Shown here piece by piece: positions 47,987-56,826 of a DNA stretch of 64,000 nt (position 1 is the stretch's first letter; every line of letters starts with the position of its first letter). The position numbers and the translations under genes were made by a program. Below the pieces are notes generated by a model. That model was not told the DNA's origin, ran no database searches, and saw nothing but the letters and a program-made list of their open reading frames with translations. The stretch lies in assembly GCF_029168945.1 (NCBI RefSeq), contig NC_083604.1, positions 76,214,211-76,278,210 of the forward strand, in the 5' to 3' direction. The stretch is from Cannabis sativa. Its lineage: Eukaryota; Streptophyta; Magnoliopsida; Rosales; Cannabaceae.

Positions 47987-48017
47987 CTAGGTAGGAGTTA
48001 CGTGCCGAGGCACGTAA
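47987..48017 (-). other. Helitron 3' terminus: hairpin plus CTAG
   Basis: The hairpin arms are 48009-48017 and 47998-48006, and ctag lies at 47987-47990, seven bases beyond the stem. It serves as the rolling-circle termination signal in the Helitron model. Confidence 0.8.
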
Positions 48018-48347
48018 ATGTTAGTTTTAGGTAAAATTTACTTTTTTTTTTTACTTCTTATTTAGATTGTATGTGAAGGTATGATTATACGAATGATTTG
48101 TTTTAGCAAATTAATATTTGTGCTATTATAATTGGTTGGTAAAATATAATTAGGTATATATAAATCAAAATAAAATGATACTTATTATTTACTTCTAGAA
48201 AATTTGGTATATGAAATACTTGCATACAATACTCCATGTAAATCCGTAGATAACAAGTCAATAGAAAGTGAAAGAAGCTCGGCACCAAGAAAAGTCTTAA
48301 CACTAAATAAAATAAAATTACTGTAAAAGAAAAATGGCAACTTCTGC

Positions 48348-48703
48348 CTAATCTTCCATTGGTTCAACTGCTTGAATGGTGAACTGATTGTACTTTGAAC
48401 TCATTGTTCGGTTTGCATCTACGTACAACTGAATTCTCCATTTTTTGGCTGATAGTTGCCTTGTAGTTTTTTGGACAAACAACTTATGTTTCTGAAGAAA
48501 AAAAAATGATTGGTTATAAGTTTTAATGTATTTCTATGTACGAAAATGTATAAATTTTACATATTTATTTTTTTATAGTTACCTCGTCCGAATATGATCT
48601 TAATTGAACTGCAGTACATGAGAATATGTTTTCTGCAACATCACCGAACATCACAGCATCTAGCAACTCTGTACCATCGTCGAGTTGTACATATGTCCTT
48701 GCA
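48348..48703 (-). pseudogene. RPA70-like fragment (last two exons)
   Basis: Exon a (48703-48583) reads ARTYVQLDDGTELLDAVMFG then DVAENIFSC, the OB-fold pattern of the RPA1 C-terminal DNA-binding domain. Exon b (48491-48348) runs to a TAG and ends FTIQAVEPMED. Splice sites are intact (gag|gtaact, cttcag|aaac). RPA-like genes are frequent cargo or native genes of plant Helitrons, so this may be the element's own relic and not a recent capture. Upstream exons were not found. Confidence 0.65.
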
Positions 48704-48965
48704 CTAATAATTTATACAGAATATGTAACGGTTAGTATGAATATGCAAGAAGTTCAACGATTGATTGATTGATTTTATGGTCCAATTAATGGAAAACAAT
48801 TTAAGATATATTGATGGAAATGCAATGCACACATTAGAATATAAACAGTTACTATTAGTTAGAGTTTTATATCTTACAAGAGCATTGCAAGCCTAGCAGA
48901 ATTTAGTAGATAAGACAAACATTAGTATGCAGGTTTATTAGTATGCTAGAAAACTAAATCGTTGA

Positions 48966-49081
48966 GTAACCACTTGGGGCTAGCTCAAGTGGCCATAGGT
49001 GGGTGTGTGAGTGTTGGAGGTCCTGGGTTCGAGTCCCAGGTAAAACATGATGTAATATATAAACGCTTGAATAAAAAAAAA
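48966..49081 (+). mobile_element. tRNA-derived SINE with 16-bp target duplication
   Basis: The body has Pol III promoter boxes: A box tagctcaagtgg (48981-48992) and B box ggttcgagtcc (49026-49036). It ends in an A-rich tail. Perfect flanking repeats 'aaaactaaatcgttga' lie at 48950-48965 and 49082-49097, as made by LINE-assisted retroposition. It is inserted within the Helitron. It is not a functional tRNA gene, because the 3' half of the cloverleaf is missing. Confidence 0.92.
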
Positions 49082-49389
49082 AAAACTAAATCGTTGAAAC
49101 TTTGATGTAGTCTTGAGCCCCAGACACTTCTGTCTTCTAAATAGTACTTGTGACAGGCTGCATATATATATTGGAAAAAGCAATAAACATTTGGAGCAGA
49201 CATATTGTGAGACATAACAAGCATGAGCCAAAAGAAAAAGTTAATGTTTCTTTCCCCCCAATAAAACCTCCAAAATTAAAAAATCTATACTAAATTAATA
49301 GAACAAATATAAGCACAGTAACTACAGTGATGTCATGTGATTAACTTACTAATCATTAATCATTACATAAGAAAAACCTAGTCAGTGAA

Positions 49390-49745
49390 AAAAAGAAAAA
49401 TACACGCGAACATCAAATAAACCTCTACATGCGAATGACCATATATTTTTCTATCTTTTCAAAGGAAGAAAAAACAAATACTAATTTCAAGTCACAATAC
49501 AGAGCAAGCAACATTTCCAGAAGAAGATATAACGATCATCCATATTCAAGGCCTCTGTGTAGTCATCCATATTCAAGGCCTCTGTGCAGTCATCCTCAGC
49601 ATCCTAGAAAAGAGAAAAATACACGCGAACATCAAATAAACCTCTACATGCGAATGGCCATATATTTTTCTATCTTTAATGTAACGATCATCCATATTCA
49701 AGGCCTCTGTGCAGTCATCCTCAGCATCCAAGTATATCTTTGCAA
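49390..49745 (-). pseudogene. TPR-protein fragment (RPAP3-like), locally duplicated
   Basis: On the minus strand 49745-49681 reads AKIYLDAEDDCTEALNMDDR, which matches the helix-turn-helix text of a TPR unit in RPAP3-like cochaperones. Parts of it recur at 49535-49605, and a flanking block (acacgcgaacatcaaataaa) occurs at about 49402 and 49621. The exon was therefore partly triplicated by local rearrangement. Assignment rests on one short motif. Confidence 0.45.
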
Positions 49746-50097
49746 GTTGATTGATTTTATGGTATTATTTTTAATAAAAAAAATTATTATATCAACGATT
49801 TCTATTAAATAAACACAGTACTTATATATAAAGATATATATTTATATCTATATATATATTTATATGTATAGCATGCTATAAGGTATATATTAAAGCGATC
49901 GAAAAGAGTATAATAAGAATAATAACATAGAAAAATGCAAAATCTAGTTTAAATATACCCTTAAATATAAATTTATACAGTATAACTTATACTAAAACTT
50001 TTATACATATATATTGTGCTATATATATGCATGAGATTCCTTATAGAACTAACTTATTCTTTAATTAATTAGCTATTATTGGTTAAAAAGTAATGGT

Positions 50098-50331
50098 CTA
50101 TCAAAAATACTTACACATATATAAACAAATTATTATTATTACTATTTTTTTCACAAAACAAATAACTTTAAAATATAAAAGGGCAAAGAAATCACGGATC
50201 GGCCATCAAAACCCAGAAGACAAAATACTCAGCAGACTGGCCATCAAAAATACTTACACATATATAAACAAATTATTATTATTACTATTTTTTTCACAAA
50301 ACAAATAACTTTAAAATATAAAAGGGCAGCA
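50098..50331. repeat. Direct tandem repeat of about 85 bp
   Basis: The block starting 'atcaaaaatacttacacata' and ending 'aaaatataaaagggca' occurs at about 50100-50186 and again at about 50245-50330, nearly identical. It lies in the Helitron and is non-coding. Confidence 0.85.
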
Positions 50332-54541: not shown

Positions 54542-54544
54542 TCA

Positions 54545-55142
54545 AAACAAAACAGCAATTGTACACGACAATCTAATGAATCCTTGATCCCTAAAAAAAC
54601 ATAAATAAAAATCGAAAAAAGAAACTTTAGACAAATCAAATCTCATATAGTTACATACCGGAGACGCCCCAAATGTGTCATATGATCTCACTATTGCAAT
54701 AGTAGGAAGTTGATTATGTCTGAGAAAGAATCAATTTACAATAGCCTTATGGAGAAGATCAAACAGAGAATCGCAGGCCATACCAAACCATTTTATAAAT
54801 TTAATATATCTTCTTGATACAAAACTATTATATATGTATACATGATCTTTAACAGGAAGATACACAATAGAGAAACTTTCCCTCTTTTACTCGAATAGCA
54901 CATGAACCAATACCAATATATTGAAACAAAATATCATAGACAAATCAACCAACTAAACAGCGGTAACTATTTTGGTCTGTGTTGTTAACTTACTGTAATG
55001 ACTGATGTTGCAAGTCTAGGTCTTTCCTAGCATCTTTTAAGGTAACCATTTTCAGAATAAAGAATGTAGCATAGTACCATAGTGGTGGTAAGATAAACCT
55101 CAATGAAAACCTGTGCACTGAAACATGACAGTAAAAAAAAAT
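54545..55142. other. Helitron non-coding interior
   Basis: AT-rich; no recognisable exon. Probably intronic DNA carried along with the captured fragments. Confidence 0.4.
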
Positions 55143-55226
55143 ATCAATGAACAAAAGAAAAGAACTTGCCTCATAAGCCTCAGAGATCTGCTTAAATGTA
55201 GCTTCGGCTTCCTCTTTGTTATTACG
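55143..55226 (-). repeat. Duplicate of the 3' part of the captured DnaJ exon
   Basis: About 84 bp nearly identical to 56111-56193, including the end of the DnaJ exon (FKQISEAYE) and the first bases of its intron with the same gc donor (gag|gcaagt). Similarity ends at 55226, where unrelated sequence begins. Confidence 0.85.
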
Positions 55227-55805
55227 TGCATATATGCATTTGAAACATGATTTTTCATTTTACACTTGCATTTTGGTTCCAGATGAGGAGGAGAAAAGGA
55301 GAATTCCAAAAGTACAATTCTGAACACATAATTAAGAAAAATTATCTCTTACTTTGGAAAGAAAAAAACTATCTTAAGTTATTATCAAAGATATTTAAGA
55401 ACATAAACGGAAACTCCTGTAGGGAAGAGAAGATGTCAATTGAACAATTAATTATATTTATAATAACTAAGTAAAATAAAAGCTCGCACACTCATTCCTG
55501 TCTGGCAAACACAAATGTACCAAAGTATTTGGCAGTTGATGTAAAATCAAGCTTAAAGCAAGGAGTTGAATTAAATTAGACATTTTCATTAAAATCATTT
55601 CTTTCAAATTGCTTAGGGTTGTTACAAATAACACTCACACATATTCAAAGGGGAAAATGAATCAAATTACTCTCATGCATATTAACATATCGCGTCAAAA
55701 CGAGTAGGCACCGTAATCCCTTAACTTGGAAAGTTAAAAATATCTAATTCCTAGCATTTCTTGATAGCCAAACAGGAAAGCGAAAAGGAAATAGAGAAAG
55801 CATAC

Positions 55806-55985
55806 CATTTCTTGGGATAGTGGATTTGCGCCAGTGAGTTTGCATTGAGTGACAACGATTCTTTGAAGCTGATCGACCTGGCTATGGAATAGCTCTCTCT
55901 GCGAGTCCAATGACTTCGCTAACGAGTCGGCGGAGGTGCCGATCTGTATCTCCAAAAAATCTTCCTTCAAGGCGTTCATCGCCAT
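55806..55985 (-). pseudogene. LUMINIDEPENDENS (LD) first coding exon, captured
   Basis: ATG at 55985 opens 60 codons ending at a perfect donor (gaaatg|gtatgc). The text SLDSQRELFHSQVDQLQ and VVTQCKLTGANPLSQEM matches the N-terminus of LD, a homeodomain protein of the autonomous flowering pathway. The following homeodomain exons are not in the window, so this is an isolated exon. Sequence conservation is high, suggesting recent capture. LD identity is by recall of the family. Confidence 0.8.
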
Positions 55986-56137
55986 GAAGTTTTAACATAA
56001 GGAATCATGAACTATGATCTCATATCCCAATATCCAACAATATAATTCCAATAATACAAAAAAAGAGCAAAACCCATCAATTAAAATGAACTCAAGAAGC
56101 TTAAACAAACATCAATGAACAAAAAAAAAGAACTTGC

Positions 56138-56302
56138 CTCATAAGCCTCAGAGATCTGCTTAAATGTAGCTTCGGCTTCCTTTTTGTTATTACGATTCTT
56201 ATCAGGGTGCCATTTCATGGCCAATCTCCTGTAAGCTTTCTTCAAATCATCATCTGTGGCGTTCCTATTCACCTTCAATATGTTATAGTAATCAACACCC
56301 AT
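56138..56302 (-). pseudogene. DnaJ (HSP40 subfamily B) first exon, captured
   Basis: ATG at 56302 (MGVDYYNILK; an in-frame ATG at 56332 adds ten unlikely residues) gives 55 residues of a J domain, with the HPD motif at residues 32-34 and KQISEAYE at the end. The exon ends gag|gcaagt, a GC-type donor. Full-length DNAJB proteins have over 300 residues, and no further exon is found downstream. It lies about 500 bp inside the Helitron 5' end and could be the first exon of a chimeric transcript. Confidence 0.8.
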
Positions 56303-56806
56303 TTTTTCTTTTCGAGAAAAGTATTGATCCAATGATCAGGATCAGATCCAAATCTATCAAATTAGACCCTTTTGATGAAAACCCAGATCATCAATTTCCA
56401 CAACACCTACAGAGAAAGAGAGAGACGACTTGGTTAAGAAGAAGACTGCATGAAATTTTGTCAAAACGACCAAAAATGAATGAATTGAATGAGAAATTCA
56501 ACCTGGAAAAGCAAACCCAGATGGGAAATTCAGCGTGTTGAATGAGATCGCAGCCATAGATAGAAGGTATCGATGGTAGCCCTAAGAAGAGAAACAATTC
56601 ATTTATGTAAATAAACAGAGCAAACAGAGCTACGATTGAGATGATTTTTTTTTTATATATATATATATATATTTATAAAAAAAAAGTTAACGGCGTTAAA
56701 AGAACCCGTTTACAAAAAAATAAAAATTATTTATTTTTGGGTTAAAAAAAATAAAAGAATCGTTAAACCAAGAATTCACGTTAAACCAAGAAATGTCGTT
56801 AGATAG

Positions 56807-56826
56807 GCACTTTTAATATATAAAGA
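56807..56826 (-). other. Helitron 5' terminus
   Basis: Minus strand begins tctttatatattaaaagtgc, preceded by A and with no inverted partner at the other end, as expected for a Helitron. Confidence 0.7.

What the first reader, a model, noticed from the sequence alone, without database searches (positions are those of the whole stretch)
47987..56826. Multi-gene-capturing Helitron, 8.8 kb, with six host gene fragments in one orientation
Seen: A|TC start, 9-bp hairpin, CTAG|T end, and exons resembling DnaJ, LUMINIDEPENDENS, DUF89, SMARCAL1/CHR18, TPR/RPAP3 and RPA70, all on the minus strand with splice borders kept. Known: Helitrons capture gene pieces and can express chimeric transcripts. Inferred: a minus-strand transcript starting at the DnaJ exon could join exons from unrelated chromatin, chaperone and repair genes, and could give rise to small RNAs against the parents.
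Basis: partly seen in the sequence, partly recalled or inferred. Interest (0 to 1): 0.88.

Follow-up and report, generated by a model that had tools for sequence, protein, structure and literature searches.

The report
Gene-capturing Helitron with nested palindromic retroelement
An 8.8-kb mobile DNA element of the Helitron class in a Cannabis chromosome holds sense pieces matching host genes on other chromosomes (four read there as genes, a fifth likely) in front of the tail of the element family's own DNA-binding-protein gene, and is split by a head-to-head retroelement array that likely entered later as one ready-joined unit; whether the gene pieces are expressed together is untested.

Summary
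The Helitron is real and its ends are right. The 3' end was found at 39 other places in the same genome (40 candidates scored of 285). A TPR piece is shared with one sister copy; its parent was not located. All are sense.

Correction: the "RPA70" piece is not a host capture. It is the last two exons of a 435-residue RPA gene of the family, present whole in two fetched copies that also carry a Rep domain.

Three further arrays were fetched; all four have distinct perfect 5-bp duplications, and their short junctions look like two unprocessed cDNA ends joined.

The Helitron is a new member of a known kind. The palindromic Cassandra is the more novel part. Expression, splicing and small RNAs were not testable here.

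The parts
47987..56826 (-). Helitron, 8,840 bp, A|T target, no Rep domain of its own
   Evidence: Termini recur together in 15 of 20 fetched copies; no PF14214 match in the window among 99 in the genome
56780..56826 (-). 5' terminal sequence; 15 of 15 two-ended copies match from base 56826
   Evidence: the longer 5' module 56558-56826 is family-shared
47998..48017 (-). 3' hairpin, 9-bp stem and 2-nt loop
47987..47990 (-). 3' terminal CTAG, followed by T (47986)
55982..56489 (-). Captured DnaJ (J-protein) piece: 5' leader, first coding exon 56138-56302, start of intron; GC donor
   Evidence: Pfam PF00226 E=3.2e-22; C1:45832416, 96.9% over 515 columns, with the rest of the DnaJ gene downstream
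55229..55983 (-). Captured LUMINIDEPENDENS piece: first exon 55806-55979 plus intron
   Evidence: C10:18130755, 99.3% over 755 bp, LD-like exons follow
55135..55226 (-). Second copy of the end of the DnaJ exon
   Evidence: 96% repeat of 56103-56194
54634..55141 (-).
   Evidence: C3:8694859, 99.4% over 508 bp, nicalin-like exons follow; PDB nicalin, weak, E=0.36
54241..54618 (-). Captured DUF89 / At2g17340-like damage-control phosphatase, two exons
   Evidence: PDB 1xfi E=9.6e-19; C10:21396576, 99.2% over 378 bp
54067..54142 (-). SMARCAL1-like exon 1 of 3, split from exons 2-3 by Cassandra
   Evidence: Matches P0006 and P0007; its own genome search did not complete
51285..51718 (-). SMARCAL1-like exons 2 (51569-51635) and 3 (51290-51334) with introns
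   Evidence: C9:3701426, 95% over 434 bp; that locus was not fetched
51145..51287 (-). Second copy of DUF89 exon 2
   Evidence: Part of a 190-nt 98% repeat; C10:21396811, 99%
50286..51124 (-). Family-shared interior module
   Evidence: Depth up to 12 of 15 relatives
49490..49764 (-). TPR exon (At1g56440/RPAP3-like) and scrambled partial copies; donor lost
   Evidence: PDB 9eq2 (At1g56440) E=2.2e-5; 49082-49739 shared with L018 at 98.8%
48966..49081 (+). Nested tRNA-like SINE with A-tail and 16-bp duplication (48950-48965 / 49082-49097)
   Evidence: Absent from sister copy L018, whose two matches overlap by those 16 bp; sequence; 'tRNA-like' by eye, ARAGORN found no tRNA
48583..48703 (-). Penultimate exon of the Helitron family's RPA gene
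   Evidence: 85 of 87 residues of the tail identical to P0126, 435 aa; P0126 found whole in L010 and L023
48348..48491 (-). Last exon of the family's RPA gene, with stop
   Evidence: PF08646 E=1.8e-4 over both exons
51719..54019 (.). Nested Cassandra TRIM array, head to head: LTRs 51719-52152(-), 52220-52574(-, its 5S-like core deleted) | 52583-53000(+), 53076-53509(+), 53586-54019(+)
   Evidence: same arrangement at L049, L050, L051
51714..51718 (+). Left copy of Cassandra target duplication GCCAA
54020..54024 (+). Right copy of Cassandra target duplication GCCAA

Best explanation
The stretch is an 8,840-bp Helitron without a Rep domain of its own, on the minus strand of a Cannabis chromosome; it shares both ends with 15 other copies examined, carries intron-containing sense pieces matching loci on other chromosomes (four read there as the gene, the fifth likely its parent too) plus a TPR piece, ends with the last two exons of the family's own RPA gene, and was likely moved by Rep-bearing relatives and likely gathered its cargo stepwise. 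Shown: the ends, the family, the matching loci, the orientation, the RPA origin, the nested SINE and Cassandra, and Rep-domain loci upstream of the same 3' end. Inferred: DNA-level capture during rolling-circle replication with template switching or end joining. Each piece is contiguous genomic DNA; the junctions examined show 2 bp shared at DnaJ|LD, a 2-nt gap at LD|DnaJ copy, an overlap of up to 7 nt in a T-run at DnaJ copy|nicalin, and a 15-nt filler at nicalin|DUF89. Inferred: because the cargo is sense and sits upstream of an RPA end with stop codon and intact splice sites, a transcript starting in the captured DnaJ leader would be able to splice host exons onto each other and possibly onto the RPA tail, most likely giving non-coding or short chimeric products and small RNAs rather than a selected protein. 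The Cassandra hairpin now inside the SMARCAL1 intron would add double-stranded RNA to any such transcript.
For: 3' end: 40 candidates scored of 285, all 40 matching, one being the window itself. Both ends at the named positions in 15 of 20 fetched copies, TA|TC 15 of 15, CTAG|TA 20 of 20. Hairpin rarity. Matching loci at 96.9, 99.3, 99.4, 99.2 and 95%, with the rest of the gene beyond the captured piece in the four that were read. Junctions. RPA tail: at least 769 bp of the 3' module in 13 of 20 copies, part of it in the other 7; P0126 (435 aa) found whole in L010 and L023, whole or in part in 18 of 20, always in the same sense; 85 of 87 residues of the window's tail identical to it. Rep domain (PF14214) on the same strand inside L010, L023 and L025, upstream of the same 3' end. 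Gene models joining host pieces to each other or to RPA: P0003, P0006, P0008, P0130-P0132, P0136, P0137.
Against: No empty allele of this insertion was seen. The 5' end was not searched genome-wide. The TPR parent was not located, and the C9 locus taken as the SMARCAL1 parent was not read. No RNA or small-RNA data: the chimeric genes are predictions only. The single orientation could be chance: 6 of 6 sources in the Helitron's sense is 1 in 64 under a coin toss, and gene models can only show sense fusions. The helicase part of the Rep-bearing relatives was not tested.
Confidence: 0.93

Rival explanations
1. RPA70 is a further captured host gene.
For: The C-terminal RPA domain is recognisable (PF08646, E=1.8e-4, below Pfam's own cut-off).
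Against: It sits at the same place before the 3' end in 18 of 20 fetched copies, with the front of the gene too in 7 of 20. The fragment finds no RPA chain in the PDB at E<=1. All five hits to the fragment are Cannabis, among proteins of similar length only, and the family RPA's best non-Cannabis hit is a Humulus RPA70-B-like protein at 48% over 74% of the query. RPA genes inside plant Helitrons are published as PHRPA (PMC4683698).
Confidence: 0.05
2. The exon chain is a functional new gene kept by selection.
For: In-frame SMARCAL1 splice phases and intact borders; chimeric model P0006.
Against: P0006 differs from the window at several residues and is a gene-finder's choice of splices; the TPR part is scrambled; Cassandra and SINE lie in the element; matching loci at 95-99% leave little time for selection.
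Confidence: 0.05
3. The Cassandra part is two independent, opposite insertions, or a later inversion, not one dimer insertion.
For: Tandem Cassandra arrays by recombination are known (PMC7215508); LTR copies in the window differ by 5-13%.
Against: One 5-bp duplication spans the whole unit in 4 of 4 loci examined, each with a different 5-mer. Two insertions into one target would leave the 5-mer also at the centre; the centres read ATTTATCG (uncertain, the plus LTR start is degenerate), ATTAT, ATAC and ATAT.
Confidence: 0.2
4. Nested Helitrons: the 5' and 3' ends belong to different elements.
For: Maize Helitrons with several termini are published (PMC3288121).
Against: 5'-shared (56558-56826), middle (50286-51124) and 3' (47987-48766) modules occur together, in order, in relatives.
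Confidence: 0.04

Closest known systems
Maize helA/helB gene-capturing Helitrons (Dong et al. 2011, PMC3288121)
   Same: TC...hairpin...CTAG ends, stepwise capture of several gene fragments, internal loss, RPA-bearing relatives; helAs carry 0-12 fragments, mean 3
   Different: Other species and family; here the family's own RPA end lies downstream of the cargo, and one copy holds pieces of five genes plus TPR
Mothra and PHRPA Helitrons of rice (Roffler et al. 2015, PMC4683698)
   Same: Helitron-borne RPA gene; non-autonomous members with RepHel proposed to come from relatives
   Different: Mothra consensus is about 2 kb and repeat-rich; here host exons precede a truncated RPA end
Cassandra TRIM tandem arrays (Kalendar et al. 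2020, PMC7215508)
   Same: 5S-like LTRs, arrays of LTRs separated by short internal domains
   Different: Head-to-head (U3-U3) arrays with both outer ends U5 and one target duplication; the passages read there describe head-to-tail arrays

Membership tests
Helitron (canonical) | 5' TC and 3' CTRR ends, A|T target, no target duplication | tested here: met
   TA|TC 15 of 15, CTAG|TA 20 of 20
Helitron (canonical) | GC-rich hairpin 5-15 nt before the 3' end | tested here: met
   9-bp stem, 7 nt before CTAG; 0.017 expected
Helitron (canonical) | Both ends recur together as a family | tested here: met
   15 of 20 fetched (16 with L037)
Helitron (canonical) | RepHel-coding relatives with the same ends | tested here: inconclusive
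   Rep domain with the same 3' end and strand in L010, L023, L025; their 5' ends were not within the fetched 10 kb, and the helicase part was not tested
Helitron (canonical) | Empty site in a related haplotype | not testable with these tools
   One assembly only; flanks are (TA)n
Plant Helitron RPA (PHRPA) | RPA gene carried by the Helitron family | tested here: met
Plant Helitron RPA (PHRPA) | Falls in the PHRPA clade outside core RPA | not tested
   No tree built; no PDB RPA hit for the fragment
Gene-capturing Helitron | Fragments traceable to host genes elsewhere, introns kept | tested here: met
   (four genes read); SMARCAL1 locus matched but not read; TPR not traced
Gene-capturing Helitron | Chimeric transcripts | not testable with these tools
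   Gene models only
Cassandra TRIM | 5S rRNA-like sequence in LTRs, short internal domain with PBS | tested here: met
Cassandra TRIM | Both LTRs direct, ends U3 and U5 | tested here: not met
   outer ends both U5; halves inverted. Each half alone has direct LTRs

The most novel reading that the evidence does not exclude
Cassandra cDNAs are joined U3 to U3 by end joining before integration, and the palindromic dimer then integrates as one unit through its two outer U5 ends, so that a self-complementary retroelement has spread in the Cannabis genome. One such unit landed in the intron of a SMARCAL1 piece in this Helitron. The centre of each unit carries the dinucleotides next to each half's own LTR start: AT+AT in L051, AT+AC in L050 whose plus half itself ends in AC, AT+T+AT in L049, and AT+TT+AT in the window, where the plus LTR start is degenerate.
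Probability: 0.65. Interest if true: 0.62.

Novelty: new member of a known kind. Interest (0 to 1): 0.48.

Why it matters
The Helitron shows recent capture (95-99% identity) of pieces of five genes lying on three other chromosomes and C10, in one strand, upstream of the family's own RPA end. RPA-fused gene models with bromodomain, LD, SAC, pantoate-ligase and DEAD-helicase pieces suggest that this RPA gene is a recurrent fusion partner in Cannabis, which RNA-seq could test directly. It also warns annotators: several Cannabis gene models look like Helitron mosaics. The head-to-head Cassandra units, if they integrate ready-joined, would be a route by which a retroelement makes inverted repeats, and so double-stranded RNA and silencing signals, in one step.

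Tried and rejected
Rfam at gathering threshold on the window: no hit, so the 5S-like LTR part was shown by blastn instead. The one sub-threshold Rfam hit (mir-9191, E=0.014, score 27.6 against a gathering score of 100) lies across the inverted junction and was taken as chance palindromy. ARAGORN found no tRNA. PDB comparison of the SMARCAL1 piece gave only chance-level hits, and Pfam gave none for it, nor for the LD, DUF89, TPR and nicalin pieces. A scan of viral contigs for the 3' end found nothing. Considered and rejected: RPA as a host capture; a selected new gene; nested Helitrons (see rivals). The 'transit-peptide-like' reading at 50405-50632 was dropped when the stretch proved to be a family module.

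Never answered: genome search of the 5' end, of 54020-54420, of the TPR stretch 49085-50330 and of the Cassandra junction pattern.

Rows dropped before counts: matches under 40 nt and matches inside 51719-54019, matches under 40 nt or under 80%, matches inside 51719-54019. Only 20 of the 39 listed 3'-end matches outside the window were fetched, the best-scoring ones.

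
Full report
CHECK OF THE OBSERVATION. On the minus strand the stretch 56826 to 47987 begins A|TCTTTATATATTAAAAGTGCC and ends with a 9-bp, 2-nt-loop hairpin, 7 nt and CTAG|T. A scan of both strands for CTRR|T preceded by a stem of 8 or more bp with 5 or more G/C found this one site, against a mean of 0.017 and a maximum of 1 in 60 Markov-1 sequences of the same make-up.

SAME GENOME. The window is C4:76214211-76278210 of a held 770.7-Mb assembly. It is taken as Cannabis sativa because all five hits to the RPA piece are Cannabis proteins and two of them lie on contigs of exactly the lengths of C1 and C8. 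The last 94 bases had 285 first-look candidates; 40 were scored and all 40 matched, one being the window itself. Twenty of the 39 others, the best-scoring, were fetched with 10 kb. Fifteen of 20 have a 5' match that starts exactly at window 56826, in the same orientation, giving elements of 2,700-6,776 bp; all 15 are preceded by TA, and 20 of 20 3' ends are followed by TA. A 16th, L009, has its 5' end just outside the fetched stretch, in L037. The other four (L010, L022, L023, L025) show no complete 5' end within 10 kb. Three of these four, L010, L023 and L025, hold a Rep domain (PF14214) on the same strand upstream of the 3' end; the window has none.

WHAT IS CAPTURED. A genome search with 54400-56560 returned matching loci, aligned and read. 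DnaJ: 56489-55982 matches C1:45832416 at 96.9%, and the rest of a J-protein gene follows there. LUMINIDEPENDENS: 55983-55229 matches C10:18130755 at 99.3% over 755 bp, and further LD-like exons follow. DUF89/At2g17340-like: 54618-54241 matches C10:21396576 at 99.2%, and PDB 1xfi matches the peptide at E=9.6e-19. SMARCAL1-like: 51718-51285 matches C9:3701426 at 95% over 434 bp; that locus was not fetched, so its being the parent gene is inferred. The first SMARCAL1 exon, 54067-54142, was matched only by protein. The TPR exon is closest to At1g56440 (PDB 9eq2, E=2.2e-5); the stretch 49739-49082 recurs in one sister copy, L018, at 98.8%, and its parent was not located. All six sources are sense.

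SPLICE BORDERS. The exon borders read are canonical for LD, nicalin, DUF89, SMARCAL1 and RPA. The SMARCAL1 exons 2 and 3 keep their phase, so that splicing would restore PDLR-DRYDK as in P0007. DnaJ keeps a GC donor. The TPR exon has lost its donor, and its copies are scrambled.

CAPTURE JUNCTIONS. Compared with the matching loci: 2 bp shared at DnaJ|LD, 2 nt extra at LD|DnaJ copy, an overlap of the matches of up to 7 nt in a T-run at DnaJ copy|nicalin (with mismatches there), 15 nt of filler at nicalin|DUF89. Each piece is contiguous genomic DNA with introns, so capture was at DNA level. DUF89 exon 2 and the DnaJ exon end are each present twice. The DnaJ piece also occurs in L033-L035, which carry Helitron interior sequence about 1.1 kb further on, so that capture likely predates this copy, which fits stepwise capture.

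RPA IS THE FAMILY'S OWN. At least 769 bp of the 3' module 48766-47987 is present in 13 of 20 fetched copies and part of it in the other 7. P0126, a 435-aa Cannabis RPA-like protein, is found whole in L010 and L023, and whole or in part in 18 of 20, always in the Helitron's sense; the front of the gene is present in 7 of 20. The tail encoded here is identical in 85 of 87 residues. Plant Helitron RPA genes are published (PMC4683698: abstract, part 1 of Results and part 1 of Discussion read). Relative to L018 this copy lacks about 1.8 kb holding the front of the RPA gene.

CHIMERIC GENE MODELS. P0006 (275 aa, Cannabis, G4B88_007433) joins DnaJ-LD-DUF89-SMARCAL1-DUF89-TPR, so it is a close copy or allele of this chain annotated as one gene. 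Others join host pieces to the family RPA: bromodomain (P0003), LD (P0008), SAC (P0130), pantoate ligase (P0131, P0136, P0137) and a DEAD-helicase piece (P0132). These are predictions, and a gene predictor can only join sense pieces, so they do not measure an orientation bias.

NESTED INSERTIONS. A tRNA-like SINE (48966-49081) with a 16-bp duplication is absent from L018. Cassandra: 51719-54019 holds five LTRs, two on the minus and three on the plus strand, joined at their U3 ends; four keep the 5S-like core and the second minus one has lost it. Both outer ends are U5, and one 5-bp duplication, GCCAA, flanks the whole. That it came after the captures is inferred. An ordinary Cassandra at 60145-61090 has the duplication ATACG. 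A genome search with the junction found nine other loci where the match spans it (query start at most 6, end at least 183 of 201), among 40 scored of 949 candidates. Three of the nine were fetched. With the window, 4 of 4 have a perfect and different 5-bp duplication (GCCAA, AGTGT, TTATC, AAAAC); L051 has a single plus LTR. The centres read ATTTATCG (uncertain, because the window's plus LTR start is degenerate), ATTAT, ATAC and ATAT. The internal domain normally ends ...GTGAT|TGTGAC; in L050 the plus half ends ...GTGAC|TGTGAC and its centre ends in AC. This is what end joining of two cDNAs, each still bearing two nucleotides beyond its U3 end, would leave; integration through the two U5 ends is inferred. 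Against it: the LTRs in the window unit differ by 5-13%, 8-13% for the innermost plus copy, whose changes are rich in CTG/CAG to CCG/CGG and could be sequencing error.

MECHANISM. Most likely the Helitron was mobilised by Rep-bearing relatives and gained cargo over several rounds. Any transcript from the DnaJ leader would run sense through all host exons to the RPA stop. I expect mainly aberrant chimeric RNA and small RNAs; a selected protein is unlikely. None of this was tested with RNA.

COMPARISON. Dong et al. 2011 (PMC3288121: abstract, outline and found passages read) report 0-12 fragments per maize helA and stepwise capture, so the Helitron is a new member of a known kind. The Cannabis pangenome paper (PMC12286863: found passages only) mentions Helitrons near genes and cannabinoid synthases; those passages do not describe this family. 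The 2026 review PMC13317346 (found passages only) has no RPA and no Cannabis in its main text by that word search. For Cassandra, PMC7215508 (found passages) and PMC10886601 (found passages) describe tandem arrays and do not describe head-to-head units in the passages shown; PMC12312487 (found passages) uses head-to-head for VANDAL21, a DNA transposon. The listings (15 of 284 papers shown; 10 of 53; 12 of 21) showed no report of such integrated units; this is a look at listings, and the library lacks most subscription papers.

Noticed in passing
51714-54024; L049, L050, L051: Head-to-head Cassandra units with one 5-bp duplication around the whole; 4 of 4 examined, nine junction-spanning loci besides the window among 40 scored of 949, three of them fetched.
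   Followed up: partly
52583-53000 and L049:773-1202: The innermost LTR of a head-to-head unit shows many CTG/CAG to CCG/CGG changes; could be base-calling error in CHG-methylated DNA or real (by eye).
   Followed up: no
60145-61090: Ordinary Cassandra, minus strand, duplication ATACG.
   Followed up: yes
48966-49081: tRNA-like SINE with A-tail and 16-bp duplication, absent from sister copy L018.
   Followed up: partly
P0003, P0130, P0131, P0132, P0136, P0137: Cannabis gene models that fuse bromodomain, SAC, pantoate-ligase or DEAD-helicase pieces to the Helitron RPA; likely misannotated Helitron mosaics.
   Followed up: partly
C3:8.46, 8.695 and 8.703 Mb (L038, L031, L039): Several nicalin-like stretches close together on C3, possibly pseudogene copies.
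   Followed up: no
51098-51144 and 54194-54240: Short stretch after each DUF89 exon 2 copy that is not DUF89; origin unknown.
   Followed up: no
43031-45453: Minus-strand open frames resembling a plant mitochondrial calcium uniporter (recalled; translations, no family search).
   Followed up: no
15940-18715 and 35807-39439: Long open frames resembling Copia-type polyproteins (recalled, translations).
   Followed up: no
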